Source of the DNA: Rugalucina vietnamica
Taxonomy: Eukaryota; Mollusca; Bivalvia; Lucinida; Lucinidae
Reading direction: 5' to 3'
Assembly (NCBI GenBank): GCA_964017185.1
Contig: OZ024876.1
Span: 30,529,778-30,593,777, forward strand
Length of the DNA: 64,000 nucleotides
The position numbers and the translations under genes were made by a program. Shown piece by piece: positions 1 through 58,668 of the stretch; position 1 is the stretch's first letter, and each line of letters opens with the position of its first letter. The notes beneath the pieces are model-generated. The model searched no databases, had not been told where the DNA came from, and saw only the letters and a program-made list of their open reading frames with translations.

Positions 1-82
1 AGCCCTTTTCTGTGCCTGTACAGGTCGGTTTATGTCGGACCTGCTCGGAAACCACATTGTTGGTTTTCCCACGAGGCGGCTC
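1..82 (+). mobile_element. F1 MITE, 3' end
   Basis: Right-hand part of an F1 copy, ending GTTGGTTTTCCCACGAGGCGGCTC in two overlapping motifs; continues upstream of the window. It ends 32 bp before the first exon. Confidence 0.85.
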
Positions 83-114
83 AAATAAAGCATTAAAATT
101 CTCTCCCATTTCAG

Positions 115-244
115 AATCGGACTTTGTGGGTTACCTCCCTTTGGATGTTCTAACAGCTGGTATAAAGTCAGGAAGATTTGTACAAGGTTTCCTACAAGTC
201 AACAAGAGTAATGCCTCTCAAGAAGCTTTCTTAAGAAGATCTAG
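115..244 (+). CDS. DIS3L: DIS3L exon 1 of window
   Basis: The acceptor is the AG at 113-114 and the donor GT is at 245-246. The exon encodes [20 protein letters not shown] and the following residues, a signature of the first OB/cold-shock region of DIS3L. It starts in phase 1, so an upstream exon must exist, and it ends with two bases (AG) of a split Ser codon completed by the T at 1182. An F1 MITE ends 32 bp before the acceptor. Confidence 0.9.
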
Positions 245-3200
245 GTAATAAAATTTATACATACCAGTATGTAGGATCTTACATTAGTGGTCTTTTCATA
301 TGACAGTTATTAAATGAGCGTTTTGCCAATTTAATGAATTCCATTTGAAATGAGACGTTAAATCTCAACACAAACAAATCATTTGAAAGGACCAGGAGTA
401 TAAGAATCTGTTTATGATATGATGTTTGTTTGTTTTTTGGTCCACACCTATACATGAGGTTATGAACTCCCGCAAAGTTTCTATGCGTGGACTTTATTTA
501 AAGAGGAAGCTCAATTGGACTAGTCTAATCGTCCCTGAGGTCCTCTGTCAAAACAAAACATACAATCAAATATATACAGTGATGCTATCATCTCAATAAA
601 CAGGGACATGACACGATTTAACTTCAACTACACAGAAAGCTCAATAAACCCGGATAGCTCAGTCGGAAGCGTGTACCTCTGCCGTGCAGGTTCGAATCCC
701 ACTGGCGAAGTCAGTAAAAACTATCAATTATTGAAAAAAGTAACAATGGTTCCTGCATCGGTATGTACCAATGGTTTGACTGTCACCTTCTGGGTGCGGT
801 GGTTTCACAGGGTATTTCCCGACCAAGTGTCGAGAACTGCCCTTTCTTCCCCCACCACTAGACAGTCGGCGTTTAAGAAGCAGAATTGCTTAGCTGAGTA
901 GAAATGTCTAGCTTGACGTCTATCTCTAGTAAGTATTTATGCATAATTGAAGGCGCGATGTTATTTTTGGTGGAGAAAACTGGAAGAACTTTAAAAATCA
1001 CCAACTCTGGATTATGGAACACGGGTACACCACTAACCTGCCAACATGCATATACCAAGACACAAAATGGGCTGTAAAAATGACTATGCAGCCCAGTCTG
1101 TGTTGGGCCTGGTTTGAAAACCATGAAGACTGGTTTTCTTGCAATGGGTCTCACTTAATCTAATCATCGTCTATGTTTCAGTATTGACATGACTGAGGAT
1201 AGCAGGTCGGATATTTTGATCCCCGGGTCTGCAGCTAGGAACCGTGGTATACATGGTGACCTTGTTGCCGTGGAGATACTGCCAAAGTCAGAGTGGAAAG
1301 GAAGATCATTGGTCATACATGTACATGAAGCAGTTCAGGGTTGGTACTCCAAGAGTTTTCTTTGGTATTAAGGATTTTATCCTAGACTTTAGTGTTCAAA
1401 ATTGATGATTTTAATTGAGCATGTGCGTGAAAAAACAAACAATTTGAGTTCGGACAGGTCAGACACAAATAAGCCTGTACAGTCACAGAAACAGGCTAGA
1501 TGCTTGAAATTTTGGATTTATGAAGAAGAGGGATTCCACTATCCATGTAGCGAAAACAAAGGCGTTGTGCAGTTACTGCACAGCTGATCTGGGCCTTTGT
1601 TTTTTCATGGGCATATTGTTGGTTTTCCCATGCGGCGGCTCATTTGTGCATTTTCAAATGAAATTATAACAAAAGCATGTAGTTTTCTGGGTTTTTTTTA
1701 GTTTTTTTTTTTTGTTTTTTGTCTCTGTTGGAGAATGTGAGAGAAAATCAGGTCATAAATCCATGTCCAAGAAACTGAAGCTGAATAATAGTCTTCTCAA
1801 CATGTCTGTTTATCATGTGACATAGCTGTTATTAACTCATATTTGACGAATGGACTTTCCCATCATTATCATTTGGGTGAGTCAACTTTGATTTTTAGGG
1901 GCATCAGGAGTGATTTTTAAATTTTATTCAATTTTACAATGAAAATTCTCTAAGCAAACAGAATAGCCCCAGATGGGACGCCGCATTTTGCGGCGTCACA
2001 TCTGGGGCTATTCTGTTTGCCTATGTCCCATAAAAGGGACGCCAGGCTTAAATGAGTTAACATTGGAAAACATCATGTTAAAAATATATGACCGAAAGTT
2101 AAATAATATAAACCATATTCATTCTAATTAGGGCACAGTGCACTTAACTTTTCAAAATAACTTCAAGTTAGGGTGACAAAATATTGTTCTAATAAGCGCA
2201 CACTACAAACCAAAACAACACACAAACTGCTAAAATAAACATGTCCATAGCATTAATGGTAATGTCATAAAAGTGTTTCATTCATTGCAAAATGGTGTTT
2301 GTCCATTTAAGGTTAAGTTTTAATGAGGTTAATATTGTATTTATGTGTAAAATTTGTGTAAAATACCAATTTGCTATTAGAGCAGTGTGCACTTATGCAC
2401 ATGCTTTTCAGAAAGGACCAGGCTTTGCACTTCTTGGGGGCATGTGCGCTAATAATAATTGAGCCACTGCATGAGAAAACCAACAATTTGCATAGGCCAC
2501 AACAAAGCCGCAGATCAGCTCTGCAGTAACTGCACAGCTGATCAGCGCCTTTGTTTTCACTGCACGGATAGTACAATCCTTCTTTTAAAATCCGAAATTT
2601 CAAGCTTCTAACCTGCTCCGGTGACTGTAAAGGCCGGTTTGTGTCAAACCTGGTTGGAACCCAAATTGTTGTTTTTTCTCAAGCACAGGCTCAATTAGAA
2701 CGAATATGGTAAGCAGCAATGCTTAACATCATGAATCCCTCGATGACAACAGTGTTGAAATAGCTTCAGTAAACACTTTTGGTATTTTCAAACGAAATTT
2801 ATGAAGGTTATTTTAGAATCCTCCATGGCATAGTGGTTAAGTTATTCCCCTAATGAACCAGGGGGAATGGTTTTGATCCGGACTTCTCCATTCTTTTGGA
2901 TGATACTTTTAGCCAAGGCCCCTTCTCTGTAATTGTATGTTCAAACCAAGAAAAACAATAAAACAAATAATTGCTTTCATATAAAAGGATCACTCATGTA
3001 AGATCTTGTATATATTTTTTTCCTATTTAAGACAAATCTAAGGCTGAGGATGGGTCAGATGACAGTAAAGCAGCACAGGAGGAGACCAGTGATGTCATGC
3101 CAACAGGGAAAGTTGTAGGCATCATACAGAGAAATTGGCGAGAATATGTTGCCTGCTTCTCCCAAGATGAGGTTAGTAACAAATATCCCAATAAGTTAGT

Positions 3201-6200
3201 CTTTATGCCCTGTTTGGAAAAATTGGAAAATGAGCCGCAACATGAGAAAACCAACAATCTGCATATGCCAAAACAAAGCAGATCAGCTTCACGTTAACCA
3301 GGAAGCTGATCATCGCCTTTGTTTTTGCTACACAGATGGTACAGTTCCTCTACTTTCTAAAAAAAAAAAATTCAAGCTTCTAGCCATCTTCTGTGACGGT
3401 ACAGACCAATTTGTGTCAGACCTGTTCAAAAAACACTTTGGTTTTCTTATGACGTGGCTCAAATTGTGTGGTAAGGTACCATGGACACCTCAATGGTTTG
3501 TTGTCAGTGGTTGTAAGGCTTAGGGCAATATTGCGTGAAGCTGTCCATAGTATTGAGGGACATAGTGTTTTTTCTGGGGTGGGGGGGTGGGGTAGGGGGT
3601 GCTCCGATATCATGATATGTGGTTCTGATCATAACTGGCTGTTGTCTTGAACGTTTAAAAGGTAGTTACACCTGTGTGTAGTGTATTGGAAAAGGGTGAA
3701 AAGATACTGTACACAATATGAGCCGGGACGCGAGGAAGCCAGTCTTCGAAGTCTCCTACCAGGTGTGACATAATCGCCCTGTACAGTCACAGAAGCAGGA
3801 TGGAGGCTTGAAATTTTGGCTATTAGTAGAAGAAGAATTGTACTATCCCAGTAGCGAAAACAGAGGCACTGATCAGCTGTGCAGTTACTGCACAGCTGAT
3901 CTGTACCTTTGTTTTCGCATATGCAAAAATCCGGTTTTCCATTGATGCGGCTCATATAGAACAGGTCAACCTCATTATAATGCTATGTTTGGGGCTCATA
4001 GAAGCAGACCATATTATAAGTGAAACCATGTTGTAATGAGGCTACTTACTATAACCATATAGCAAATTTGGGAGCCATGACATGGCAGTGCTATATTGAA
4101 AGCTGCATAATAGGGAGGCATGTTATAATGAGGTTGAAAAAAACTTGGTCAGAATCTTTTGCATTTGCGAAAACAAAGACACATATCAGCTTTGCAGTAA
4201 GCGCCTTTTTTTTGGCTACACAGTACAATACCTCTATTTTCTAAATCCAAAATTTTATATTCTCCTACCAGGAATTGGGGCGTGGGGACAAGAAAGCTGG
4301 GAAGGTTTTAGTGATCCCTTGGGACTTCAGAATACCAAAGATCAGAATTAGTACAAGGCAGGTGGACTCCCTTAGAAACCACAGGTACATTATTAATTAT
4401 GAAGGAATGGAGACTTTAATTGCACGGGGTCTATTCTCTAAGCCTCCATAATCTGGTGTCGTCTAGGTATAAGCAGGTTCCGGTAGTGGTTTTGTGAAAT
4501 TGAATGTAAACAAAGAAATGGAGTAGACAGGTCAACAGGTAAGTTGCATTATTTCTGTTTTATCTTTTCATTTTGAATAAAATCCTGATGTGCAGTCTCA
4601 AGAGAATTTACAAACGCTAGTAGAAATCAAATCTAGAGTGGCGAAGATGCAATAGGAAACTAGATTTTGATGTTCAAAGTTTCGATACGTGGCTGTTTTG
4701 ATGTAACAGTTTCGGCCAGATTCACAAGTTTGCCCTACATTTTGAATATTTATGCACCAGGCATTGTCCGATTCGACCCACAAACAAATATAACCAGTAC
4801 GTACATTCCTGGGAATCGAAATAGCTTCATGAAAGCGAGTCCAAAATGAAAAATCTTGGTATAAGCACATTTTTCAGGTGGTCGTGAATGTTAAGACGCT
4901 TTAGTACGGTAGACGTGCAATCTGACTGACACTGTACCAGGTACTCATCTTGAATTGCTTATGCAATCACAAGCACACTCAAATTTGAAATAATTGAGCT
5001 TGTTTATCGTGGCTGAGAGACATATTCGCTCAAAAGCTTAACAAGGATCTTATCCCATCCCAAAACATAAAATGGTTCCTCATAATTCTGGCGTGAGTTG
5101 CATAACGCGAACCCTTGAGATATTGATGACGCCATTTGATCTTCCTTATTCCTTAGCAACGGCGGGTTGCTGTCAGAGAGGCAGCTCCTGGGAATGTTAC
5201 GTAGCGCTGGCGAACACTTTTTTGTAACATACCGTTGCATAGGAAATAGTTGCGAAGTGCTTGCTAACCCTGTTTATGTATAACATGTATCAGCTAACGC
5301 GTCTATTCATATCCTACATAATATTCCTCATGCACATTTGTGGCAAATAAAATGTCGTATGCAGGGTGCATAATTTTCTAAGTTAAGAATTAGATTGTTC
5401 TCATTGAATGGGCCAGTTGTGTAGTAGAAAATGAGTCTAGTCTATTCAACTGGCGATTGTTTTAATGTGGTTTGAAATTAAGTTGAATTGTTTTTGGTGT
5501 TTTTATATGAAAATGAAAGGCGTATACACTGTTCTAGACGATAAACATGCCTAAAAGGAAGAAGAAGACCAACTTGACAACATGAAAAAAGCACATGCGC
5601 ATGAGGAAAAGTCGGCCTGGTTTAGTCCCCGTAATGAACTGGAACACTGAAATTTTTGAAAATGATGAATCAGTGGACGAAGAAGAAAGTGATGTGGAAG
5701 ATGAAATTAATTTTGAAGATGGGCCGATAAGAAATTATCCAGAAGGGTAAAACATCTACTTAACGTTTAAGCAAATTTTGGCATTATCAATAAGAGAAAA
5801 CAGAAGCATATCAATCACAGCTGCTTATATCAGGTTGCGACATAAATAGTTCAAATTTCCGTCCGTCCGTCTGTATGTTCGTTCGTCAATAATGTAAGCA
5901 TGCAACCCTGTACAGTAATTGTGCTTGACATTAGCTTCAGCAATGCACCTAGACCCGGTGTCCTTGCTCTATACATAAGAGTTGGGTGACGTCGAATTGC
6001 GTCGAGTCTATAACTATAGAATGTTGTTTAGCACTGAATATACTATTGCATTTGTAGGCGGGCGTATATGTTATATATCTGGTTCTACACAGGGAGCTTT
6101 GAATCCCTCCCGACATCACTCAACAATTGTCGACTGGGATGTATAAGTGACATACATTGAACGTTAAAAGATCTACTTTGAAAAGTTTGTTTGTTTGAAT

Positions 6201-26823: not shown

Positions 26824-26870
<47 letters not shown>

Positions 26871-41800: not shown

Positions 41801-44800
41801 TTAAAACACAAAACAAAGCTCTTGGAATAAGATCTGGCCCCAAGATTATGAAACTTTTTTCATGCTCAGCTCAGCTGAGACTAAAATTTATTCTGCTCAA
41901 AAATGTTAAACAAGTAGCCCAAGGGCAGCGATCGCTCACCTGAAAGTCAATAAGTACAGTCACTGGACAAAGTAGTTGGGGTTTTTACCATATATGGGTA
42001 TGGTGGCCATCTTGGTCATGTTACCTTGAAACCCTACTTACTTCAGCAGAAGATCTCTTGTCCGCCATTTTGGTTCACTTGAAAAAATCATCATACAAGG
42101 CCAGGGTCCTATAATGGTGCCCATGCAGATGCATGCAATATAGATGGAAAAAGGGCTGCTGATGTTGCCGCAACTGATATGGCAAAAAGTGTCATTAAAG
42201 CTCAAACGAAACTTAGCCTAAAATGTATATCTGCCAGAATTGTTAAGAAGCACAGGATAGACTACCAATACAAAATTCCAGATTCTCTTCATGACTTTAT
42301 CAAAACTCATTAACTCAAGTTCATGACAATGGATTTAAAGTTGTTGAATGTTTTTGTATGCTATTAAAATGAGAAGATTTTTAAAGGTTTTTGCTATTTA
42401 TAGCCATGGTGGCCATCTTGGTCATGTAACCTTGACCATTTATACAAACTTTCATTCCCTCTTCCTAAGGATGCTCCACATAAAGTTTGGCTTTGATTGG
42501 CCAAGCGGTTTCAGAGAAGATGTTTGAATATTTTGGTTATATACACGTATATAGCCCTGGGACAGGGGCAGACAAACCCCCTGGGCCCAAAATATTTTCG
42601 TGAACATAAATCTTCTGTCCATTTGCTCATTCCTAGCAAGTTTTCTGCCATTAAATGACATTTCCTATTTTTTTCCCATTCAAATGCATGGGCGACCTAA
42701 GGTGACCTTGCTGTAAAAAAAGGTCAAGGTCATCCCAGGGTCATGATTTATACAAACCTTGTAGAGCTCTATTGCCTGATGCTTCATAGTGCCAAGTTTC
42801 AAAATGATAGGCCTTCTGGTTCTGGAGAAGAAGACTTTTAAAGGTTTTTACTATTTATAGCCCTGGCGGCCATCTTGGCCATGTGACCTTGACCATTTAT
42901 ACAAACTTTCATTCCCCCTTCCTAAGGATGCTCCACATGAAATTTGAAATTGATTGGTCAAGCGGTTTCAGAGAAGAAGATGATTGACCAGAGGACCAAT
43001 GGTCCTGTAAACGCTCACCTGAGACCTGAGATATATATATATGAACTTGTTAGACTAGAATGGTACAATGCATGTATATAACCCTAGGGCAGGGTCAGAA
43101 TAACTCCTGGAGTCAATGTCTTTTTCAAATCATAAAAATTCAGTCCATTTGCCAATTAACTGCAAGTTTTGTCCTTCAAATGACATTTTAACAATTTTCT
43201 CCATTCAAATGCATGGGCGATCTAAGTTGACCTTGCCGTGAAATAGGTCAAGGTCATCCCGGTGTCATGATTTATACACTATAGAGAAATTTTGTAGACC
43301 TCCGTTCCTTAATGCTTCATGCCAAGTTTCAAAATCATAGGCCTTCTGGTTCTGAAGAAGAAGATTTTTAATTTTTTTTTGCTATTTATAGCCATGGCGG
43401 CCATCTTGGTCATGTGACCTTGACCATTTATATAAACTTTCATTTCCTCTTCCTAAGGATGCTCCACATAAAGTTTGGCTTTGATTGGCCAAGCAGTTTC
43501 TGAGAAAAAACTGTTTGAATATTATGGTCATCTACATGTATATAGCTCCGGGGCATGGGCAGACAACCCCTGGGCCTAAAATATTTTCATAAGCATAAAT
43601 CTTCTGCCCATTTGCTCATTCCTAGCAAGTTTTCTGCCATTACATGACATTTTCCTATTTTTTCCCATTCAAATGCATGGGCAACCCAAGTTGACCTTGC
43701 CGTAAAATAGGTCAAGGTCATCCCAGGGTCATGATTTATATAAACTTTGTAGAGCTCCATTCCGAGATGCTTCATACCAAGTTTCAAAATCATAGGCCTT
43801 CTGGTTCTGAAGAAGAAGATTTTTAAACATTTTTGCTATTAATAGCCATGGCAGCCATCTTGGTCATGCGACCTTGACCATTTATACAAACTTTCATTCC
43901 CTCTTCCTAAGGATGCTCCACAAAAAGTTTGGCTTTGATTGGCTTAGCGATTTCAGAGAAGAAGATGTTTCAATATTATGGTCATATACATGTATATAGC
44001 CCCGGGGCAGGGGCAGACAACCCCCTGGGCCCAAAATATTTTCTTAAACATAAATCTTCTGTCCATTTGCTCATTTCTAGCATGTTTTCTGTCATTTAAT
44101 TACATTTTCCTATTTTTCCCATTCCAATGCATGGGAGACCTAAGTTGACCTTGCCGTAAAATAGGTCAAGGTCATCCCAGGGTCATGATTTATATAAACT
44201 TTGTAGAGCTCCCAGATGCTTCATACCAAGTTTCAAAATCATAGGCCTTCTGGTTCTGAAGAAGAAGATTTTTAAATGTTTTTGCTATTTATAACCCTGG
44301 GGGCCATCTTAGTCATGTGACCTTGACCATTTATATAAACTTTCATTCCCCCTTCCCAAGGATGCTCCACATGAAGTTTGGCTTTGATTGGCCTAGCAGT
44401 TTCAGAGAAGAAGCTGTTTGAATATTATGGCCATATACATGTATATAGCCCCAGGGCAGGGGCAGACAACCCCACAGGGGCTAAAATTTTCCATTAACAT
44501 TAATCTTCTGTCCATTTGCCTATTCCCAGTAAGTTTTACCCATTAAATAGCATTTTACCATTTTTTCCCATTCAAATGCATTGGCGACTTAAGTTGACCT
44601 TGCAGTAAAATAGGTCAAGGTCATCCTAGGGTCATGATTTATATAAACTATGATGGGCCCGTGTCTCCGATGCTACATACCAAGTTTCGTGGAAATCGGC
44701 CCACTTGTTCTGGAGAAGAAGATTTTTAAAGGTTTTTTGCTATTTATAGCCATGGCGGCCATCTTGGTCATGTGACCTGGACCATTTATATAAACTTTCG

Positions 44801-45411
44801 TTCCCCCTTCCTAAGGATGCTCCACATGAAGTTTGGCTTTGATTGGCCAAGCGGTTTCAGAGGAGAAGATCTTTGAAATTGTGAACGACGGACGGACGAC
44901 GGACGGACGCCGGAGCATAGGCTCAGGTGAGCTAAAAAGTGTGAACAACGACGACGGAGCATGGGTATACTATAAGCTCACCTTGTGAGCCTAACGGCTC
45001 AGGTGAGCTAAATACCAACAATTGTTGGTATTTTAACAATTTATGAGCAGGATAAATTACAGACTTTGATCTTAACTTGAAACTTCAATCAATTTGGGCT
45101 ATTTTGTCATTTATGAGTCGTTTAAATTTTATGCTCAGCTGAATTGAGCATGGAAAAAGTTCTATAACCTCAGGACCTGGATGTAACTTGAAAATGTCTA
45201 ATACATGCATTGCCTTGTTCTCAGATCATGTTTTGTATTCACACAGGAGGTATCTGATGCAGCATTAGAGAAAAGACTTCAGCTCGAGACTCATGACCTT
45301 GGACCCAAGTTTGAATCCTTGAAGCAAGAGTATGGACAGACACCTGCAAACAAGAGCTTATACAATTTGTTTGAATCTTTTAAAGAGACAGCTCTTGATC
45401 CTGTTAGATAG
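115..45411 (+). CDS. DIS3L: DIS3L exoribonuclease, 3' part of gene (18 exons, 5' end outside window)
   Basis: This gene encodes the RNase II/RNB-family 3'-5' exoribonuclease that associates with the cytoplasmic RNA exosome. Joining exons 115-244, 1182-1339, 3032-3171, 4272-4384, 8340-8493, 10655-10803, 11747-11938, 13230-13332, 13999-14093, 14780-14936, 22730-22825, 28095-28247, 30022-30171, 31420-31521, 36847-36989, 37647-37818, 41241-41375 and 45247-45411 gives about 834 residues with every intron phase matching and GT-AG at every junction. Order: cold-shock/OB region (exons 1-5), RNB catalytic domain (exons 6-14, with [11 protein letters not shown] and [13 protein letters not shown]), then an S1-like region (exons 15-17). 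The motifs [13 protein letters not shown] and [16 protein letters not shown] fit DIS3L rather than DIS3 (PPGCTDIDD) or DIS3L2. The human protein is about 1,050 residues, so roughly the first fifth (PIN region) is missing upstream. No break in the reading frame was seen. Confidence 0.95.
649..712 (+). mobile_element. tRNA-derived SINE fragment
   Basis: CCCGGATAGCTCAGTCGG (A-box-like, as in tRNA-Lys) followed by a perfect B box GGTTCGAATCC. The arms do not pair as a full cloverleaf, so this is a SINE head, not a tRNA gene. Confidence 0.6.
1085..1154 (+). mobile_element. F1 MITE remnant upstream of exon 2
   Basis: Degenerate 3' half: CAGTCTGTGTTGGGCCTGG followed by GAAGACTGGTTTTCTTGC, matching the F1 right arm. 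Ends about 27 bp before exon 2. Confidence 0.6.
1182..1339 (+). CDS. DIS3L: DIS3L exon 2 of window
   Basis: The exon encodes [18 protein letters not shown] and [12 protein letters not shown], matching the cold-shock region of DIS3L. The acceptor is the AG at 1180-1181. The donor GT at 1340-1341 was chosen because it leaves one base (G) that joins the AC of exon 3 as Asp; reading on would give a stop soon after. Confidence 0.9.
1417..1641 (-). mobile_element. F1 MITE copy
   Basis: Full-length, reverse orientation (contains CCTGTACAGTCACAGAAAC). Starts 77 bp after exon 2's donor. The central hairpin is partly deleted. Confidence 0.8.
1832..2060. mobile_element. F8 MITE copy
   Basis: Ends TTAACTCATATTTGACG and AAATGAGTTAA are inverted. 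An internal hairpin pairs GCCCCAGATGGGACGCCGCA with TGCGGCGTCACATCTGGGGC. A second copy is at 33172-33400. Confidence 0.8.
2461..2692 (+). mobile_element. F1 MITE copy with AATT target duplication
   Basis: Full-length forward copy bounded by AATT at 2457-2460 and 2693-2696. Hairpin arms CTCTGCAGTAACTGCACAG nearly perfect. Confidence 0.85.
2821..2970 (+). mobile_element. tRNA-derived SINE
   Basis: A box-like GGCATAGTGGTTAAG, B box-like GGTTTTGATCC, then an A-rich tail with AATAAAACAAATAA. Ends about 60 bp before exon 3. Confidence 0.6.
3032..3171 (+). CDS. DIS3L: DIS3L exon 3 of window
   Basis: An acidic linker ([12 protein letters not shown]) is followed by [20 protein letters not shown], the start of the second cold-shock domain. 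Acceptor AG at 3030-3031, donor GT at 3172-3173, ends in phase 0. The acidic linker is the most divergent stretch relative to vertebrate DIS3L. Confidence 0.9.
3232..3460 (+). mobile_element. F1 MITE copy with AAAT target duplication
   Basis: Full-length forward copy between AAAT (3228-3231) and AAAT (3461-3464). Starts 60 bp after exon 3's donor. Confidence 0.85.
3720..3953 (-). mobile_element. F1 MITE copy with ATAT target duplication
   Basis: Full-length reverse copy. The central hairpin CAGCTGTGCAGTTACTGCAC pairs perfectly with its partner. Confidence 0.85.
3966..4136. mobile_element. F9 MITE copy
   Basis: Inverted ends TCAACCTCATTATAATG and GTTATAATGAGGTTGA enclose about 140 bp of AT-rich sequence. 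Confidence 0.75.
4147..4256 (+). mobile_element. Truncated F1 MITE abutting exon 4
   Basis: Middle part of F1 (GCGAAAACAAAGAC, hairpin remnant, AGTACAATACCTCTA, CTAAATCCAAAATTT), lacking both ends. It stops about 15 bp before exon 4. Confidence 0.7.
4272..4384 (+). CDS. DIS3L: DIS3L exon 4 of window
   Basis: The exon encodes [20 protein letters not shown] and then [16 protein letters not shown], the PWD(F/Y)RIPKIRIST signature that separates DIS3L from DIS3. Acceptor AG at 4270-4271; it ends with two bases of an Arg codon completed by the G at 8340. A truncated F1 MITE abuts the acceptor. Confidence 0.9.
4385..7690. other. Long intron segment, mostly unassigned
   Basis: No repeat family used here is recognised between 4385 and 7690 apart from a SINE-like tail (TTACGTCCCAGTCAACAG, 6210-6230). 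6380-6900 is rich in CGATCG/CGCACGAT words repeated in both orientations. A 139-residue minus-strand open frame (6246-6665) there has no recognisable similarity. See also 5548-5750. Confidence 0.5.
5548..5750 (+). pseudogene. Basic-then-acidic open frame with an in-frame TGA, unidentified
   Basis: ATG CCT AAA AGG AAG AAG AAG starts a lysine-rich stretch that meets TGA at codon 13. The same frame continues [16 protein letters not shown] then an acidic run ([13 protein letters not shown]) to a TAA at about 5750. The nuclear-signal-then-acidic layout resembles the N-terminus of transposon-encoded or nuclear proteins, but no family is recognised and it may be chance. Confidence 0.25.
7691..7921. 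mobile_element. F6 MITE copy
   Basis: Inverted ends: CAAGGTTATAAAACTTTTC, then ATGCTCAGCTCAGC, versus GCTGAGCTGAGCATGAAAA and AAGTTTTATAACCTCG. The interior has CCAACAATTGTTGG. Confidence 0.8.
7926..8050 (+). mobile_element. tRNA-derived SINE
   Basis: A box-like GATAGCCTAGTGACAGG, B box-like GTTTGAACCCGACC, then GTGTCCTTGAGCAAAATT, a body motif common in mollusc and fish SINEs. Lies between F6 and F1. Confidence 0.65.
8069..8303 (-). mobile_element. F1 MITE copy upstream of exon 5
   Basis: Full-length reverse copy with perfect TGTGCA-type hairpin. Ends 36 bp before exon 5. Confidence 0.85.
8340..8493 (+). CDS. DIS3L: DIS3L exon 5 of window
   Basis: The exon encodes [20 protein letters not shown] and the [16 protein letters not shown] segment, the end of the second cold-shock domain leading into RNB. 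The donor GTAACA follows GCTCAG at 8494. Some open frame continues past the donor by chance; homology stops at the donor and resumes in exon 6. Confidence 0.92.
8755..8821 (+). mobile_element. SINE 3' tail
   Basis: TGCTGTTGACTGGGACGTAA, a short AT stretch and an (CAAA)n tail. Similar tails occur near 37185-37228 and 41770-41820. Confidence 0.5.
8831..9038. mobile_element. F9-like MITE copy
   Basis: Inverted ends ACAACCTCTTTATAACA and TGTTATAAAGAGGT; a diverged member of the F9 type. Confidence 0.65.
9070..9278 (+). mobile_element. F1 MITE copy
   Basis: Near-complete forward copy, GAGCCGCTTCATGTG to ATGTCGCGGCTC; AATT/AATA flanks. Slightly shortened before TCTAGCC. Confidence 0.8.
9665..9745. 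repeat. Three tandem 22-24 bp palindromes
   Basis: Three successive copies of TATTTTCACATGTGAAAATA or its ACGTGT variant. Each is itself a near-perfect palindrome. Confidence 0.85.
9955..10112. repeat. Long hairpin (~78-bp arms)
   Basis: TTCAAGTTTTTG...GACTTTTATTTCAT...CATTCGTGCC folds on GGCACTCATGAAAT...CAAAAACTTGAA with few mismatches and a tiny loop around 10031. Foldback element or fossil terminal repeat. Confidence 0.8.
10322..10600. mobile_element. F3 MITE copy upstream of exon 6
   Basis: Full copy in the opposite sense to 58386-58668. Central hairpin TAGAACCGCCTCGCCGAGGC with AGTTCTAACAAG. Ends GGACATGTTTTCC, 54 bp before exon 6. Confidence 0.8.
10655..10803 (+). CDS. DIS3L: DIS3L exon 6 of window, RNB catalytic Asp cluster
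   Basis: The exon encodes the entry to the RNB domain and [17 protein letters not shown]. The conserved aspartates of this D-x-x-G-x-x-D-x-D-D motif coordinate the catalytic metals in RNase II/DIS3 enzymes, so the enzyme is predicted to be active. Acceptor AG at 10653-10654 after a T-rich tract; ends with two bases of a split codon. Confidence 0.93.
10804..11334. other. Intron segment, nothing recognised
   Basis: AT-rich intron after exon 6; no repeat or coding signal identified before the F2 element. Confidence 0.5.
11335..11718 (+). mobile_element. Short F2 element upstream of exon 7
   Basis: Both ends present in 384 bp: AGCTCACCTGAGCC...AGGTGAGCTTATAGTGTACC at the left and CAGGTGAGCAATATCAGGAC then CATTGGTCCTCTGGT at the right. 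Probably the minimal form of the family. Ends 28 bp before exon 7. Confidence 0.8.
11747..11938 (+). CDS. DIS3L: DIS3L exon 7 of window
   Basis: The exon encodes [20 protein letters not shown], then a stretch containing [15 protein letters not shown] and [10 protein letters not shown], core RNB sequence. Acceptor AG at 11745-11746, donor GT at 11939-11940. The 3' 152 bp of this exon plus the start of the intron is the founder of the tandem array that follows (11943-12495). Confidence 0.93.
11943..12495 (+). repeat. Tandem array of exon 7 donor-half copies
   Basis: Four extra copies of exon 7 positions 11787-11942 lie head to tail directly after the exon: 11943-12112, 12113-12263, 12264-12417 and a truncated 12418-12495 cut by an F1 MITE. 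Copies 1-3 keep a donor-like GACAG|GTAAGCA at their 3' end. None carries the exon's acceptor or its first 40 bases. Copy 3 still encodes an intact tail ([10 protein letters not shown]...CSLVSGVD) but has lost two bases upstream, so it would shift frame if joined. Confidence 0.9.
12496..12710 (+). mobile_element. F1 MITE copy, 3' end lost
   Basis: GAGACGCCCCATGTGAACAC start, hairpin, GATAGTACAATTCCTCTAC, right arm to AAACCACATTG; joined directly to an F3 fragment. Its insertion or the junction truncates the last exon 7 repeat copy. Confidence 0.75.
12711..12848. mobile_element. F3 MITE fragment
   Basis: AGGCAGTTCTAACGAGTACCC, then AAAAATAAGAAAAATAGG, CATACCCCAGTTTTACTT and a terminal ACACGCACATGTTTTTC. 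Left half missing. Confidence 0.7.
12944..13177 (-). mobile_element. F1 MITE copy with ATTT target duplication
   Basis: Full-length reverse copy; perfect TTCGC-type hairpin (GCTTCGCAGTTACTGCGAAG). Ends 52 bp before exon 8. Confidence 0.88.
13230..13332 (+). CDS. DIS3L: DIS3L exon 8 of window
   Basis: The exon encodes [20 protein letters not shown] and [14 protein letters not shown] of the RNB domain. Acceptor AG at 13228-13229, donor GTAACG from 13333. The split Arg codon joins exon 7 cleanly across the tandem array, which supports exon 7's own donor as the normal one. Confidence 0.92.
13400..13632 (+). mobile_element. F1 MITE copy with AAAT target duplication
   Basis: Full-length forward copy, AAAT at 13396-13399 and 13633-13636. 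Starts 67 bp after exon 8's donor. Confidence 0.88.
13655..13788. mobile_element. Degenerate F3 MITE
   Basis: CAGTTCTAAGGAGAACCCAC, then AAAGAAGAAAAAATG, TACCCCTGAAAATG and ACTATATAAAAGTGGAG; clear but diverged F3 right half. Confidence 0.55.
13890..13995 (+). mobile_element. Internally deleted F1 MITE fused to exon 9 acceptor
   Basis: AAAAACAATGTCTTTTATCA, hairpin fragment AGCGTCTTTGTTTTCGCT, then directly GTTTCTGTCGGACCTGGTCG and AGATTGTCAGTTTTCTCATT. The F1 terminus runs into the splice acceptor of exon 9. Confidence 0.75.
13999..14093 (+). CDS. DIS3L: DIS3L exon 9 of window
   Basis: The exon encodes [20 protein letters not shown] and [11 protein letters not shown], a less conserved RNB stretch. 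The acceptor TTTTCTCATTTACAG lies at the end of an internally deleted F1 MITE and resembles that family's own terminus. Confidence 0.88.
14175..14460. mobile_element. Small inverted-repeat element, singleton
   Basis: TTAAAGGGGCACATGTG at the left faces CCAGGTGCCCCTTTAA at the right; 286 bp, no coding capacity. Only copy in the window. Confidence 0.6.
14568..14733 (+). mobile_element. 5'-truncated F1 MITE upstream of exon 10
   Basis: Begins inside the hairpin (AGTAACTGCGAAGCTGATC) and continues to ATGACGGGGCTC. Ends 46 bp before exon 10. Confidence 0.8.
14780..14936 (+). CDS. DIS3L: DIS3L exon 10 of window
   Basis: The exon encodes [20 protein letters not shown] and [20 protein letters not shown], matching the GALELEGVEV region of DIS3L. 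Acceptor AG at 14778-14779, donor GTAAGT from 14937, ends in phase 0. Confidence 0.92.
14985..15370 (+). mobile_element. F1 MITE copy carrying a nested insertion
   Basis: F1 halves 14985-15095 and 15250-15370 are in register across a 154-bp insert. Starts 48 bp after exon 10's donor. Confidence 0.85.
15096..15249. mobile_element. Nested element with CATAGG ends
   Basis: Starts CATAGGCGTACC and ends GGTTACACCTATG (inverted 6-8 bp), flanked by GGATAG on both sides, a likely 5-6 bp target duplication inside F1. Confidence 0.7.
15371..16457. other. Intron segment, nothing recognised
   Basis: No repeat family from this window and no coding similarity. 15741-16003 has open frames on both strands without a recognisable protein. 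Confidence 0.45.
16458..17579 (+). mobile_element. F5 element with 157-170 bp tandem repeats
   Basis: Left AGCTCGCCTGCACGAAGTGC, AGAGCTATTG; right end AGTCAGGCGAGCTACGCTGT, GCGACAGCTCTTATT. About five units start at TCTATATCTCTTGAC near 16593, 16763, 16932, 17089 and 17249. Each has TGACCTTGAGGTCAAGGTCA. (GTTTAC)n and (CGTCCG)n runs lie at 16508-16565. Confidence 0.8.
17816..18022. mobile_element. F6 MITE copy
   Basis: CCTGAGGCTATAAAACG...AAGCTCAGC at the left; GAATTGAGCATGAAAGAAG and TTTTATAACCTCGGG at the right. Confidence 0.75.
18023..19083. other. Intron segment, nothing firm
   Basis: Contains a G-rich/C-rich stretch (18536-18640, runs of 7-12 G) also seen in mollusc repeats; no coding signal recognised. 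Confidence 0.4.
19084..19228 (+). mobile_element. 3'-truncated F1 MITE
   Basis: GAGCTGCGTCATGAGAG, hairpin remnant CAGATCAGCTGTGCAC, GGATAGTACAATTCCTCTTC; stops before the right arm. Confidence 0.75.
19316..19497. mobile_element. F3 MITE fragment
   Basis: ATATTGTGGGTACTACATG, GGCCTTGGTGAGGTAGG, TAACAAGTACCCAT (partly duplicated) and CCAGTTTTACTATATAAAAG; the terminus is lost. Confidence 0.65.
19666..19913. mobile_element. F4 MITE copy
   Basis: CACCAGCCATTTGTATCCAC faces GATACAAATGACTGGTGCAT. The interior is GC-rich and self-complementary. Confidence 0.75.
20072..20803. mobile_element. F3 MITE copy split by an F4 element
   Basis: Left part 20072-20302 with the GTTCTACGTGCACCCAC hairpin; right end 20761-20803 (AGTATATTACATGGGCATG). 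The F4 element at 20303-20760 sits between. Confidence 0.8.
20303..20760. mobile_element. F4 MITE copy nested in F3
   Basis: TAATGCACCAGTCATTTGCA to CAAATGACTGGTGCATA. GC-rich interior (CCCCGGC words) in inverted arrangement. Confidence 0.8.
20914..20935. repeat. (CA)n microsatellite
   Basis: About nine CA units. Confidence 0.9.
21078..21391. mobile_element. F4 MITE copy
   Basis: TGCACAATACATTTGTAACC, CCCCCACCTACAGGGAAGG versus CCCCGTAGGTGGGGGGAGG, GATTACAAATGACTGGTGCA. Confidence 0.75.
21392..22351. other. Intron segment, nothing recognised
   Basis: No repeat family or coding exon identified. Confidence 0.45.
22352..22460 (+). mobile_element. F2 element fragment, left end only
   Basis: AGCTCACTTGAGCCGTAGGC, GGTGAGCTTATAGGATAGG and CATTTTCAAAGATC; decays after about 22460. 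22461-22729 is unassigned. Confidence 0.65.
22730..22825 (+). CDS. DIS3L: DIS3L exon 11 of window
   Basis: The exon encodes [20 protein letters not shown] and [12 protein letters not shown], matching [20 protein letters not shown] of vertebrate DIS3L. It is 96 bp (32 codons), phase 0 at both ends. An F1 MITE starts only 11 bp after the donor. Confidence 0.93.
22837..23070 (+). mobile_element. F1 MITE copy just after exon 11
   Basis: Full-length forward copy; hairpin CAGCTTCGCAGTAAATGCGA pairs with few mismatches. Starts 11 bp after the exon 11 donor. 23071-23441 is unassigned. Confidence 0.85.
23442..24953 (-). mobile_element. F1 MITE copy split by F10
   Basis: Left 23442-23647 (GAGCCTGCGCATGAG... 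TAGATTGTTAG) and right 24935-24953 (TTTTCTCATGCGACGGCTC). The break lies in the right terminal repeat. Confidence 0.85.
23648..24934. mobile_element. F10 element nested in F1
   Basis: Starts TATACCCCCGGCATTTATGC, ends CTCAAGGCACTTTTTCTAG. Contains (TTCG)n-like runs (23698-23760), two ~180-bp units sharing CCTATAGGGTTTGCTTTGTT, a T-run (24464-24487) and a 115-bp tandem duplication (24661-24775/24776-24893). No coding frame. Related copy at 58852-60441. Confidence 0.8.
25349..27549 (+). mobile_element. Long F2 element nested in F1
   Basis: Left end AGCTCACCTGAGCCGAAGGC; right end CTCAGGTGAGCGATCGTTGC, CTGGGCTACTTG. The body 25560-27340 is about eleven 130-160 bp tandem units with AAACCACAAGGCCCAGAGC and GGCCCCGCCCCGGGGG. 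A 44-base G run is at 26826-26869. No genuine coding frame. Confidence 0.85.
26826..26869. repeat. Uninterrupted 44-base poly(G)
   Basis: Lies where sister units have CCGCCCCGGGGG, so it is an expansion of a 5-G run. Confidence 0.9.
27711..27840 (+). mobile_element. tRNA-derived SINE
   Basis: A box TTGGCTCAGTGGTAAGAGC, B box GGTTTTGAATCCC, then a diverged body. No full cloverleaf. Confidence 0.7.
27851..28077 (+). mobile_element. F1 MITE copy with ATTT target duplication
   Basis: Full-length forward copy, shortened hairpin (CAGATCAGTGACTGCGAAGC). Ends 17 bp before exon 12. Confidence 0.87.
28095..28247 (+). CDS. DIS3L: DIS3L exon 12 of window
   Basis: The exon encodes [20 protein letters not shown] and [20 protein letters not shown]. 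Acceptor AG at 28093-28094, donor GTGAGT from 28248; 51 codons, phase 0 at both ends. An F1 MITE ends 17 bp upstream of the exon. Confidence 0.92.
28248..28694. other. Intron segment, nothing recognised
   Basis: Only a short CA tract near 28296; 28578-28630 may be a worn F9 fragment. Confidence 0.4.
28695..28843. repeat. 149-bp hairpin element
   Basis: GATCAACCATGGTTTTCAG and TGTTCAAACATTCG face CGAATGTTTGAACTCTGAAA and ACCATGGTTGATC; the inner arms AGTGTTTGAACAC pair too. Further GTTTGAAC words continue to about 29090. 28844-29144 has nothing else recognised. Confidence 0.8.
29145..29452. mobile_element. F4 MITE copy
   Basis: TAATGCACTAGTCATTTGTA, ACCATGGCCCCCCAAC versus GCTGTGGTTACAAATGAGTG, GTGCATTA. 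Confidence 0.78.
29555..29767 (-). mobile_element. F1 MITE copy
   Basis: Diverged reverse copy, GAGCCTTCGCATGAG to GATGAAGTGGCTC. Confidence 0.78.
29775..29982 (+). mobile_element. F1 MITE copy upstream of exon 13
   Basis: Forward copy missing the left hairpin arm; 7 bp from the previous copy and opposite in orientation. Ends 39 bp before exon 13. Confidence 0.82.
30022..30171 (+). CDS. DIS3L: DIS3L exon 13 of window, RNB active-site arginines
   Basis: The exon encodes [16 protein letters not shown], then [20 protein letters not shown] and YADVL. The [11 protein letters not shown] motif is the invariant RNB C-terminal signature with RNA-binding arginines. 50 codons, phase 0 at both ends. 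Donor GTAAGG; an F1 MITE starts 11 bp later. Confidence 0.94.
30183..30417 (+). mobile_element. F1 MITE copy with ATTA target duplication
   Basis: Full-length forward copy of the GAAGACCGGTTTTC subtype with perfect hairpin. Starts 11 bp after exon 13's donor. Confidence 0.87.
30418..30859. other. Intron segment, nothing recognised
   Basis: AT-rich; no repeat or coding signal identified. Confidence 0.45.
30860..31093 (-). mobile_element. F1 MITE copy with ATTT target duplication
   Basis: Full-length reverse copy; TTCGC-type hairpin, two mismatches at the loop. Confidence 0.87.
31170..31403 (+). mobile_element. F1 MITE copy with ATTT target duplication
   Basis: Full-length forward copy. Ends 16 bp before exon 14, so its GTTGGTTTTCCCATG end lies within the acceptor's pyrimidine region. 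Confidence 0.88.
31420..31521 (+). CDS. DIS3L: DIS3L exon 14 of window
   Basis: The exon encodes [20 protein letters not shown] and [14 protein letters not shown], the end of the RNB domain (VHRLLMAAI in vertebrates). Acceptor TTTTCGCAG lies 16 bp after an F1 MITE; donor GTATGT. 34 codons, phase 0. Confidence 0.92.
31580..32970. mobile_element. F3 MITE copy split by F2
   Basis: Left 31580-31660 (GAAAACTTGCCTATGCAATA...TTGATATTT); right 32784-32970 with hairpin TTAGAACGGCCTTGCCGAGG. Confidence 0.8.
31661..32783 (+). mobile_element. F2 element nested in F3
   Basis: AGCTCACCTGAGCCGAAGGC left; GGACCGTTGGTCCTCTGGTT right. About three ~300-bp units sharing CCTTTATTTTGATTGGTTG and CATAGACTTACAATGGG. 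Confidence 0.82.
32991..33130 (+). mobile_element. tRNA-derived SINE
   Basis: A box-like GGTGGCCTAGTAGTAGAC and a perfect B box GGGTTCGATACCC (33038-33050). The acceptor stem does not pair. Confidence 0.7.
33172..33400. mobile_element. F8 MITE copy
   Basis: Second F8 copy, collinear with 1832-2060; hairpin GCCCCAGATGGGATGCCGCG with CGGCGTCACATCTGGGGC. Confidence 0.8.
33479..33556. mobile_element. F9 MITE, internally deleted
   Basis: ACCTCATTATAACATGG ... GTGTTATAATGAGGTTGAA within 78 bp. Confidence 0.7.
33605..36385 (+). mobile_element. F1 MITE copy split by F2
   Basis: Left 33605-33730 after AAAT; right 36321-36390 (TTGGTTTGTGTTGGGCCTG ... AGGTTTTCTC then AAAT). The outermost right terminus is worn. 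Confidence 0.75.
33731..36320 (+). mobile_element. Long F2 element with ~465-bp tandem units, nested in F1
   Basis: AGCTCACCTGAGGCGAAGGC left, GGACCAATGGTCCTCTGG right. Five units begin at TTTCAAAGATCTTCTTCTCT near 33805, 34268, 34734, 35197 and 35647. Each holds GGTCACATGACCAAGATGG, a CCATATATGG-type box and TAGGTCAAGGTCAT. Confidence 0.85.
36460..36668 (+). mobile_element. F1 MITE, 5' end lost
   Basis: From TTTTTGCCTATGCTAAACAA through a TGTGCA hairpin to ACGACACGGCTC; GAAGACC-like subtype. Confidence 0.78.
36847..36989 (+). CDS. DIS3L: DIS3L exon 15 of window
   Basis: The exon encodes [20 protein letters not shown] and a segment ending NGVFVFVPR, the passage from RNB to the C-terminal S1-like fold. 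Acceptor CCCCAG at 36846; ends with two bases of an Arg codon. The intron before it holds the 2.6-kb F2 insertion. Confidence 0.92.
37044..37146. mobile_element. F3 MITE fragment
   Basis: ACACGTCCGTGTAATGTATA to TATACTTTTTTTTCTTATTT; stops before the hairpin. Followed by a SINE-like tail (37185-37228). Confidence 0.65.
37232..37385 (+). mobile_element. Internally deleted F1 MITE with ATTT target duplication
   Basis: GAGCCCTGTGCAGC jumps to CTTTTGTTTTCGCTACATGG; the left arm and half the hairpin are missing, but ends and duplication are intact. Confidence 0.82.
37399..37640. mobile_element. F3 MITE fused to exon 16 acceptor
   Basis: Complete F3 with hairpin GTTAGAACCGCCTCGTTGAG. Its right end CTCTGTATTGCGTGGGCATG, TTTTGGTTATG leads straight into TTTACAG, the exon 16 acceptor. 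Confidence 0.8.
37647..37818 (+). CDS. DIS3L: DIS3L exon 16 of window
   Basis: The exon encodes [20 protein letters not shown] and a segment ending TYTLLDHIT of the S1-like domain. Acceptor TTTACAG at 37646 is continuous with the end of an F3 MITE. Donor GTACTG from 37819, phase 0. Confidence 0.92.
38061..40938 (+). mobile_element. F5 element split by F2
   Basis: Left AGCTCGCCTGCACGAAGTGC at 38061; right AGTCAGGCGAGCTACGCTGT ... CAGCTCTTATT at 40938. The F2 insert is 38752-40548. 37819-38060 holds nothing recognised. Confidence 0.8.
38752..40548 (+). mobile_element. F2 element (composite) nested in F5
   Basis: Left end at 38752; a second left end (AGCTCACCTGAGCCGAAGGC) at 40068; right end CTCAGGTGAGCGATCGTTGC, TTGGGCTACTTG. 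About six ~170-bp units with TTCTTGCAGGTAACAAGGAC between 39000 and 40060. Confidence 0.78.
41016..41219. mobile_element. F7 MITE upstream of exon 17
   Basis: GGGCCAGTTGTTCAAAACTT at the left faces AATTTTGAACAACTGGGCC. Ends 21 bp before exon 17. Confidence 0.8.
41241..41375 (+). CDS. DIS3L: DIS3L exon 17 of window
   Basis: The exon encodes [20 protein letters not shown] and an [13 protein letters not shown] tail, close to the end of vertebrate DIS3L. 45 codons, phase 0, donor GTAAGT. An F7 MITE ends 21 bp before the exon. Confidence 0.9.
41509..41741 (-). mobile_element. F1 MITE copy
   Basis: Reverse copy flanked by ATAAAT on both sides; the last two bases of the right end are missing (GAGGCGGC|ATAAAT). 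Confidence 0.8.
41836..45180. mobile_element. F6 MITE copy split by F2
   Basis: Left 41836-41910 (ATGCTCAGCTCAGCTGAGAC); right 45010-45180 (CCAACAATTGTTGG ... GAATTGAGCATGG ... TATAACCTCAGG). Ends 66 bp before exon 18. Confidence 0.78.
41911..45009 (-). mobile_element. Long composite F2 element, reverse orientation, nested in F6
   Basis: Starts CAAGTAGCCCAAGGGCAGCG (reverse of the F2 right end), ends GGCTCAGGTGAGCTA. About six ~450-bp units with CATCTTGGTCATGTGACCTT and GGTCAAGGTCATCC. Extra F2 ends near 42990-43025 and 44920-45009 show it is several F2 units fused. Confidence 0.8.
45247..45411 (+). CDS. DIS3L: DIS3L exon 18, C-terminus and stop
   Basis: The exon encodes [37 protein letters not shown] and a short tail ending DPVR with a TAG stop at 45409-45411. 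The layout (Y.Q...KSLY.L.E....AL) matches the vertebrate C-terminus. A 3.1-kb F2 insertion and F6 remnants lie in the preceding intron. Confidence 0.9.
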   Translation, partial: EVSDAALEKRLQLETHDLGPKFESLKQEYGQTPANKSLYNLFESFKETALDPVR

Positions 45412-54833: not shown

Positions 54834-55005
54834 TGAACTGCATAAATGCAAAAGCAAAAGCGCAGATCAGGTATGCCGATAGTACATTAATTCCTCTTCT
54901 TATCAAATCCCAAATTTCAATTGTCTAGCCTTCTGTGATTGTACAGGCAGGTTTGTATCCCAACTGCTTGGAAACCCCAAAAACCTGTTTTCTTCAGTCA
55001 CAGCT
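54834..55005 (+). mobile_element. Degenerate F1 MITE
   Basis: GCAAAAGCGCAGATCAGG, CGATAGTACATTAATTCCTC, ACCTGTTTTCTTCAGTCACA; hairpin lost. Confidence 0.7.
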
Positions 55006-55013
55006 AACATTAT

Positions 55014-55245
55014 GAGCCACCTCATGGGAAAACCAACAATCTGCATAGGCGAAAACAGACGCAGATCAGCTTCGCGGTAACCGCGAAGCTGATCAGCGCC
55101 TTTGTTTTCGCTACCCGGATAGTACAATTCCTCTTCTACTGAAATCCAAAATTCCAAGCTTCTAGCTCTTTTCTGTGCTTGTACAGGCCGGTTTGTATCC
55201 CAACTGCTCGGAAACCACATTGTTGGATTTCCCACGAGGCGGCTC
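55014..55245 (+). mobile_element. F1 MITE copy next to C19orf12-like stop codon
   Basis: Full-length forward copy flanked by ATTAT on both sides with a perfect TTCGCGGTAACCGCGAA hairpin. The 3' UTR of the minus-strand gene must run through it or be very short. Confidence 0.88.
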
Positions 55246-55257
55246 ATTATGATGGAA

Positions 55258-55478
55258 TCATCCTCCAGCCTTGTTGTTTGCAAATTGCCGTACAACATTC
55301 AGCAACAACTCTCGATGAACCTGAGATCCAATAAACGCAGTCAGCGCCTCTAATGTGGTGCTGCCTACTAGTTCCTGTACTTTCTTCACAAGTTCTTGTT
55401 TTTCAGCATCAGTGAGATTTTTCAATACTGTCAACATGGAGCTGTATTCATCTGATTTACAGTAGCCAATCACTGAAC
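55258..55478 (-). CDS. C19orf12: C19orf12-like exon 3, C-terminal helical region and stop
   Basis: Begins GSVIGYCKSDEYSSMLTVLK and ends NNKAGG with a TGA stop at 55260-55258. Acceptor TTCTTACAG on the minus strand. The acceptor and first bases are tandemly duplicated upstream (55453-55653). An F1 MITE ends at 55245, only about 12 bp beyond the stop. Confidence 0.85.
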
Positions 55479-58336: not shown

Positions 58337-58385
58337 CTGTAAAATAAGAGCCAAGACCTGTCTTCTGACCAGTGACCAAACTACA

Positions 58386-58668
58386 TCAGGAAAACATGTC
58401 CTTGAAATGTATACTCCCTCATACCCCATTTTTATTTAGTAAAACTGGGGTATGCAGGGGTATACCTATTTTTCTTATTTTTGCTCCAAAACATAGATTG
58501 TGGGTACTCGTTAGAACCGCCTCGGCGAGGCGGTTCTAACGTGTACCCACAATCTATATTTTGAGCAAAAATAAGAAAAATATAAAAAAAATTCTATCGA
58601 AAATTTTTGTTTTATAAAACTTTAAAAATCTCTGTATATTGCATGGGCATGTTTTCGTAATGCAAGCC
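58386..58668. mobile_element. F3 MITE, complete copy
   Basis: AGGAAAACATGTCCTTGAAA to GCATGGGCATGTTTTCGTAA, with perfect hairpin TTAGAACCGCCTCGGCGAGG. Best reference copy of F3. Confidence 0.87.

What the first reader, a model, noticed from the sequence alone, without database searches (positions are those of the whole stretch)
1..45246. Mobile elements end just upstream of nearly every DIS3L splice acceptor
Reading each acceptor, a recognisable element ends this many bp upstream of the exon: ex1 F1 32, ex2 F1 27, ex3 SINE 60, ex4 F1 15, ex5 F1 36, ex6 F3 54, ex7 F2 28, ex8 F1 52, ex9 F1 0-5, ex10 F1 46, ex12 F1 17, ex13 F1 39, ex14 F1 16, ex16 F3 0-8, ex17 F7 21, ex18 F6 66. Only ex11 and ex15 lack one. 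With roughly one element per 500 bp, about 2-3 of 18 would be expected. F1 also starts within 80 bp after the donors of ex2, 3, 8, 10, 11 and 13. F1 ends are symmetric: the downstream end always reads TTGTTGGTTTTCTCATG, so either orientation presents a pyrimidine-rich tract toward the acceptor. Either integration is biased to exon edges, or insertions there are the ones tolerated or useful for splicing.
Basis: partly seen in the sequence, partly recalled or inferred. Interest (0 to 1): 0.88.

Follow-up and report, generated by a model that had tools for sequence, protein, structure and literature searches.

The report
Short transposons collaring clam exon edges
In a clam-like genome a 234-letter mobile element sits within 60 letters of about two in five of the splice sites examined in four neighbouring genes, at exon starts and exon ends alike, probably because it settled in introns that were shorter then and were later blown up from inside by younger repeats, although real targeting of exon edges is not excluded.

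Summary
F1 is a 234-bp MITE with a 4-bp AT-rich target duplication. It ends within 60 bp of 10 of 18 DIS3L acceptors; for E2-E18 9 of 17, expected 2.0, 0 of 100,000 permutations. TCP1-family exons elsewhere show it more weakly. Corrections: it is not acceptor-specific; the any-element null was too low (6.6 of 17); and much of the effect is layering. F1 appears older than the tandem-array elements in intron interiors. In unmasked bases, 44 of 88 edges have F1 within 60 bp against 22 expected; the clear excess is confined to introns with 600 bp or more unmasked, and the one long interior I could check is a high-copy repeat younger than F1. Best reading: F1 colonised shorter introns and stayed as a collar when they grew. 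Edge-targeted insertion remains possible. A splicing role has motif-level support only.

The parts
1..82 (+). F1 fragment, right end 32 bp before exon 1 of the window (start cut by the window)
1081..1152 (+). F1 fragment, right end 29 bp before E2
   Evidence: 28.8 bits, E 1.7e-8
1417..1641 (-). F1, 77 bp after the donor of E2
3232..3460 (+). F1, 60 bp after the donor of E3; target duplication AAAT
4156..4255 (+). F1 internal fragment, 16 bp before E4
4500..7600 (.). Interior of intron 4: high-copy repeat, mostly 93-97% identical to the listed copies elsewhere in the genome
8069..8303 (-). F1, 36 bp before E5
12944..13177 (-). F1, 52 bp before E8; target duplication ATTT
13400..13632 (+). F1, 67 bp after the donor of E8; target duplication AAAT
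13843..13992 (-). F1 lacking its last bases, 6 bp before E9; its end lies in the pyrimidine tract TTTTCTCATTTACAG
14565..14733 (+). F1 part, 46 bp before E10
14985..15370 (+). F1 split by a 150-bp insertion, 48 bp after the donor of E10
22837..23070 (+). F1, 11 bp after the donor of E11 (GTACGTCAAAT|GAGCC)
27852..28077 (+). F1, 17 bp before E12; target duplication ATTT
29775..29982 (+). F1, 39 bp before E13
30183..30417 (+). F1, 11 bp after the donor of E13 (GTAAGGCATTA|GAGC); target duplication ATTA
31170..31403 (+). F1, 16 bp before E14; target duplication ATTT
37413..37639 (+). F3-family element ending about 7 bp before E16
55014..55245 (+). F1 beginning 12 bp after the stop codon of a C19orf12-like gene on the minus strand
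115..45411 (+). DIS3L exons E1-E18: 115-244, 1182-1339, 3032-3171, 4272-4384, 8340-8493, 10655-10803, 11747-11938, 13230-13332, 13999-14093, 14780-14936, 22730-22825, 28095-28247, 30022-30171, 31420-31521, 36847-36989, 37647-37818, 41241-41375, 45247-45411

Best explanation
F1 is a high-copy MITE that colonised gene introns when those introns were shorter than they are now. It inserted at AT-rich 4-bp targets right up to the splice signals; copies ending less than 6 bp from a splice site are missing, presumably purged by selection (inferred). Younger repeats then inserted into intron interiors, where target is ample and harm is least, and pushed the two ends of each intron apart. The F1 copies next to the exons stayed in place as a fossil collar. 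Shown: F1 structure, edge enrichment, replication in neighbouring genes, one long interior made of a repeat younger than F1. Supported by two nested insertions: F1 older than the tandem-array elements. Inferred: that most other long interiors are young too. Not explained by this alone: why F1 ends are about 3.5 times denser in this window than in the genome as a whole.
For: Two F1 copies are split by insertions of 1,966 and 3,324 bp that contain tandem arrays (the first also pearl-type matches), and none of 159 F1 copies was found inside an array or another family copy by the tests (limit: a tandem-array finder would report an array broken by F1 as two, so I also checked the window's list by eye: no F1 there lies between two arrays of one unit). 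The share of edges with F1 within 60 unmasked bp does not fall with intron length (9 of 14, 14 of 36, 21 of 38); introns with little unmasked DNA show no clear excess (expected 8.1 and 9.8), and the clear excess is confined to introns with 600 bp or more unmasked (21 against 4.5). The one long interior tested, window 4500-7600, is a genome-wide repeat, mostly 93-97% identical to listed copies, against 13-18% median divergence of F1 groups from the consensus. Pearl-type elements are not enriched at edges: 1 against 2.5 expected, 69 copies. No F1 ends within 0-5 bp of a splice site.
Against: Only one interior was tested genome-wide; four others were asked and not answered. It was largely unmasked, but I did not check it against the stricter mask. 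Even in unmasked bases F1 density falls smoothly from 15.2 per kb at 10-20 bp to 0.5-1.0 per kb beyond 200 bp, which needs introns of only a few hundred bp at the time of F1. F1 end density in the window (36 matches at up to 2 mismatches in 64 kb) is about 3.5 times the genome mean (172,937 in 1.09 Gb), so some preference for, or retention in, genes is still needed. F3 is also enriched (8 edges against 2.4, p 3e-4) and was not dated.
Confidence: 0.55

Rival explanations
1. F1 (and F3) integrate preferentially next to exons, 10-60 bp outside splice sites on both sides, for example guided by exon-linked chromatin or methylation, or by splicing-coupled open DNA; selection removes hits in exons and splice signals.
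For: Symmetric sharp peaks at donor and acceptor; replication in POLG and, weaker, in TCP1-family genes (8 of 16 nearest F1 ends within 60 of about 290 bp scanned, p 0.009); the W4-restricted null leaves 20 against 7.4 acceptors and 17 against 4.8 donors; unmasked-base nulls leave 44 against 22-26 edges, 0 of 20,000; near copies are not older, and the youngest third is the most edge-bound (15 of 29 against 11 of 30 of the oldest; no test run); F1 is denser in these introns (96 in 114 kb) than outside them (63 in 150 kb, which may hold unfound genes).
Against: No clear excess in introns whose unmasked DNA is short, and the only long interior checked is a young repeat. Gap does not depend on exon length (rho -0.01, n=45), against a nucleosome centred on the exon, and far copies show no GC step.
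Confidence: 0.3
2. F1 is kept near acceptors because its ends supply a pyrimidine tract and a CTCAT branch-point-like motif (exaptation or positive tolerance).
For: In E4, E9, E12 and E14 F1 ends 6-17 bp before the exon, so the usual branch-point zone (about -18 to -40, recalled) lies inside F1; the F1 end reads CTCAT at -17 to -52 before E5, E8, E10, E12 and E13 and CTTAT at -16 before E14. E9 has an F1-derived pyrimidine tract. Copies near acceptors are on the gene's strand 15:5, against 30:23 far away (no test run).
Against: Donors are equally enriched; no extra conservation of acceptor-facing ends; the end is paired into the element's own stem in 4 of 5 complete acceptor-side copies.
Confidence: 0.08
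3. Copies next to exons merely survive longer because deletions there would hit the exon (deletion shadow).
For: Fast intron turnover in bivalves is my assumption; no test here.
Against: Near copies should be older; they are not. The peak is tens of bp wide, not hundreds.
Confidence: 0.04
4. Chance, or selective reading by the first stage.
For: The pattern was picked after the fact from one window.
Against: 0 of 100,000 permutations, and replication in sequence fetched afterwards.
Confidence: 0.02

Closest known systems
MITEs (miniature inverted-repeat transposable elements)
   Same: Short, TIR-ended, fixed-length target duplication, tens of thousands of copies.
   Different: Strong concentration beside splice sites; I did not find this reported for MITEs among the rows listed by searches.
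Sola2 DNA transposons
   Same: AT-rich 4-bp target duplications of the type AWWT, as described for Sola2 elements in PMC3627910 (passages).
   Different: No Sola2 transposase or end sequence compared; assignment open.
Introners (PMC9860276, passages)
   Same: Some introner families have TIRs and 4-bp target duplications and a genic bias.
   Different: F1 does not form the intron: splice sites lie outside the element, several copies per intron, gaps of 6 bp and more.
TE underrepresentation zones of mammalian introns (PMC3088655, passages)
   Same: The same measurement, TE distance to exon.
   Different: Opposite sign: mammalian TEs are depleted near exons, and those very near exons are biased to the donor side.
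MITE-like repeat in introns of Lucina haemoglobin genes (PMC4732748, passages)
   Same: MITE-like repeat in several introns of one clam gene.
   Different: No splice-site proximity in the passages seen; sequences not compared.

Membership tests
MITE | Terminal inverted repeats | tested here: met
   GAGCC..CATGAGAAAACCAACAA / TTGTTGGTTTTCTCATG..GGCTC
MITE | Fixed-length target site duplication | tested here: met
   14 of 25 copies with exact 4-bp duplication, 8 more with 3 of 4, 3 with 1 of 4; shuffled pairs mean 3.5, max 10 exact
MITE | Short (50-500 bp) | tested here: met
   234-bp consensus
MITE | High copy number | tested here: met
   172,937 end-motif matches genome-wide at up to 2 mismatches, 413 for the reversed control
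MITE | Mobilised by an autonomous DNA transposon sharing its ends | not tested
   No transposase looked for
Sola2 | 4-bp AWWT target duplications | tested here: met
   Mostly AATT, AAAT, ATTT, ATAT; also TTAT, ATTA, ATCT and others
Sola2 | Sola2 transposase or matching ends | not tested
   No reference ends or transposase compared
Introner | Element supplies or delimits the intron, splice sites at its ends or target duplication | tested here: not met
   Splice sites lie outside F1, no F1 end within 0-5 bp of a splice site in 46 introns, up to 6 copies in one intron
Introner | Intron absent from relatives without the element | not testable with these tools

The most novel reading that the evidence does not exclude
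F1 and F3 belong to transposon lineages whose integration is directed to exon-intron borders on both sides, 10-60 bp outside the splice sites, giving a class of exon-edge-targeting elements that sit exactly where mammalian genomes exclude transposons.
Probability: 0.28. Interest if true: 0.85.

Novelty: new variant of a known kind. Interest (0 to 1): 0.58.

Why it matters
In mammals transposons are depleted beside exons (PMC3088655, passages). Here one MITE family stands within 60 bp of about 40% of the splice sites tested in raw coordinates (37 of 92 in 46 introns). Either integration can be aimed at exon edges, or the collar is a fossil of how introns grow: first elements stay at the rim and later ones fill the middle. 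Both can be tested with one clam genome and a sister species. The second would give a clock for intron expansion and a caution for every TE-to-exon distance analysis.

Tried and rejected
Branch-point and pyrimidine-tract role: one search shows motifs but no extra conservation; one search shows the end is mostly self-paired. Nucleosome centred on the exon: no correlation of gap with exon length. GC step as target: none at far copies. Simple W4 target preference: covers part of the acceptor side only. Deletion shadow: near copies are not older. Intron creation by F1 (introner): splice sites lie outside F1. Searches for F1 ends in viral and prokaryote genome collections: 0 matches (the tool says records of the window's own genome may be left out); in papers: 0. 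Rfam: nothing over gathering scores; sub-threshold hairpin matches are not meaningful. Papers whose passages held nothing on TE-to-splice-site distance for this question: PMC10294476, PMC3276498; PMC12910113 (passages) says TEs close to exons lower expression in a fly.

Weak points of the gene models. POLG and EDC3 were named by match to recalled human proteins, not by a family search, and their splice sites were read by eye. The POLG model is incomplete: exons 4-19 joined are not an open frame (21 stops in 706 codons) and three stretches of the human protein had no match, so some of its 18 'introns' hide exons; the found edges are canonical. In EDC3 one coding exon is probably missing in intron 1, which holds no F1; adding it would add two edges without F1. 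The TCP1-family gaps were read by eye.

Rows dropped: F1 matches under 15 bits (12); three of 46 PF00118 matches, all on C9 in one 623-aa open frame, taken as intronless; two of 18 F1 that were not the nearest to an exon. The first self-BLAST returned nothing (I suppose invalid scores) and was repeated with others. One search failed on a missing donor and was rerun.

Full report
What is there. The window carries exons of DIS3L on the + strand. A recalled human sequence located the exons. Eighteen exons with canonical splice sites join into one 834-aa frame with RNB and Dis3-type cold-shock domains, 73% identical to Mercenaria mercenaria DIS3-like exonuclease 1. A C19orf12-like gene lies on the minus strand at 58303-55258. 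The genome has 1.09 Gb in 47 contigs.

F1. Profile search gives a 234-bp element with inverted ends of about 25 bp (GAGCC...CATGAGAAAACCAACAA) and an internal hairpin. Of 25 copies with both ends, 14 have an exact 4-bp target duplication and 8 more match 3 of 4; the left copy is 97% AT. This is a MITE. The AWWT-type duplication resembles Sola2 (PMC3627910, passages), but no transposase or end sequences were compared. The end motif occurs 172,937 times genome-wide at up to 2 mismatches against 413 for the reversed control.

The observation in the window. F1 ends within 60 bp of 10 of 18 acceptors and begins within 80 bp after 7 of 17 donors, one of these a weak copy. With copies placed at random inside each intron, E2-E18 give 9 of 17 acceptors, expected 1.96, 0 of 100,000 runs; donors within 80 bp 7 of 17, expected 2.55, p 0.004, but donors within 20 or 40 bp are not significant in this gene alone. 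For all repeats together (57% of intron bases) acceptors are 14 of 17, expected 6.6, p 2e-5, and donors 8, expected 6.6, p 0.30. Shifting F1 round the window gives at most 10 of 42 coding edges in 20,000 runs against 17 observed.

Replication. I fetched 100 kb on each side and found EDC3, the first DIS3L exons and POLG (EDC3 and POLG named by match to recalled human proteins). POLG alone gives 8 and 7 of 18; EDC3 alone (4 introns) and the 5' DIS3L part alone (5 introns) are not significant. The POLG model is incomplete (21 stops when exons 4-19 are joined), so some of its introns hide exons. Over 46 introns of four genes: 20 acceptors and 17 donors against 5.2 and 5.2; F3 8 edges against 2.4, p 3e-4; pearl-type elements 1 against 2.5; five rarer families give 0 or 1 edge each. 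In TCP1-family genes on seven contigs (43 exon hits of 46), 8 of 16 nearest F1 ends lie within 60 bp of the exon and none between 180 and about 290 bp, p 0.009. Only 8 of the 86 edges there carry an F1 that close, so the effect is weaker than in the first genes.

Shape. F1 per kb from the donor: 0 (0-6 bp), 5.4 (6-10), 13.0 (10-20), 6.5 (20-40), 3.3 (40-80), 0.4-1.4 beyond 100. From the acceptor: 0, 10.9, 13.0, 9.8, 3.3, none at 80-150, then 0.5-1.7. So the copies stand as near as splice signals allow, on both sides. Divergence from consensus is 0.146 near and 0.164 far, p 0.08. Gap is unrelated to exon length. AT-rich targets are denser near acceptors (0.26 against 0.14) but not near donors (0.147 against 0.151); restricting the null to such targets leaves 20 against 7.4 and 17 against 4.8. 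That null keeps both copies of each target duplication, which makes it conservative.

Layering. F1 appears older than the tandem-array elements: two F1 copies are split by insertions holding such arrays, and none of 159 F1 was found inside an array or another family copy (an array broken by F1 could be missed by that test, but the window's own array list, shows no F1 between two arrays of one unit). Later intron growth therefore inflates the raw effect. Counting only bases not masked by arrays, known families and a 264-kb self-comparison (39 of 114 kb), 44 of 88 edges have F1 within 60 bp against 22.4 expected, or 25.9 with AT targets, 0 of 20,000 runs. Split by unmasked intron length, the excess is nil below 300 bp (9 against 8.1), small at 300-600 (14 against 9.8, p 0.06; 12.3 with AT targets, p 0.30) and large at 600 and more (21 against 4.5, 0 of 50,000). 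The self-comparison misses repeats that are rare within 264 kb. The one long interior I could test genome-wide, DIS3L intron 4 (window 4500-7600, largely unmasked; not checked against the mask), proved a high-copy repeat, mostly 93-97% identical (81 matches from 40 scored of 3,694 candidates). By identity it is younger than F1. Four other stretches were asked and not answered.

Judgement. The pattern is real in these genes and reaches other contigs in weaker form. The simplest account is that F1 settled in introns that were short, up to the limits of the splice signals, and that younger repeats later opened the middles. That account is shown for one interior and inferred for the rest; it also needs introns of only a few hundred bp at the time of F1, and does not say why F1 ends are about 3.5 times denser here than in the genome. 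True edge-targeted insertion would explain all of it and is not excluded. A splicing role has motif-level support only. In mammals the sign is opposite: TEs near exons are underrepresented, and fewer lie near acceptors than donors (PMC3088655, passages; Alu, PMC6326789, passages).

Print status. Searches listed no report, by title and start of abstract, of MITEs enriched at exon edges in a mollusc; I saw listings and passages, not whole papers, some lists were capped, and the library lacks most subscription journals.

Noticed in passing
window 11991-12485: 151-bp tandem array of about 3 copies of the 3' part of DIS3L exon 7 with its donor, lying in the following intron.
   Followed up: partly
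window 55450-55644: 42-bp tandem array repeating the splice acceptor and first codons of the last exon of the C19orf12-like gene, so several acceptors stand in a row.
   Followed up: partly
window 29555-29982 and 54835-55245: Two pairs of F1 copies only 7 bp apart.
   Followed up: no
window 58374-58668 and about 40 other places in 264 kb: F3: about 300-bp element with inverted ends CATYANGAAAACATGTCC / GGGCAAGTTTTCGTAATG, also enriched at splice sites, no clear target duplication by eye.
   Followed up: partly
window 25582-27327, 33805-36085, 43122-44877 and others: Tandem arrays of 150-465 bp units, several next to CGTC/ACGG microsatellites, like bivalve pearl-type elements (name recalled, from no call).
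   Followed up: no
G000 contig C8, 61636712-61637131 (L054): Three tandem matches to the same part of the TCP1 family: small exon duplications, as in DIS3L exon 7, may be frequent in this genome.
   Followed up: no
264 kb round the window: F1 is very unevenly spread: 13 copies in some 10-kb blocks, none in others.
   Followed up: no
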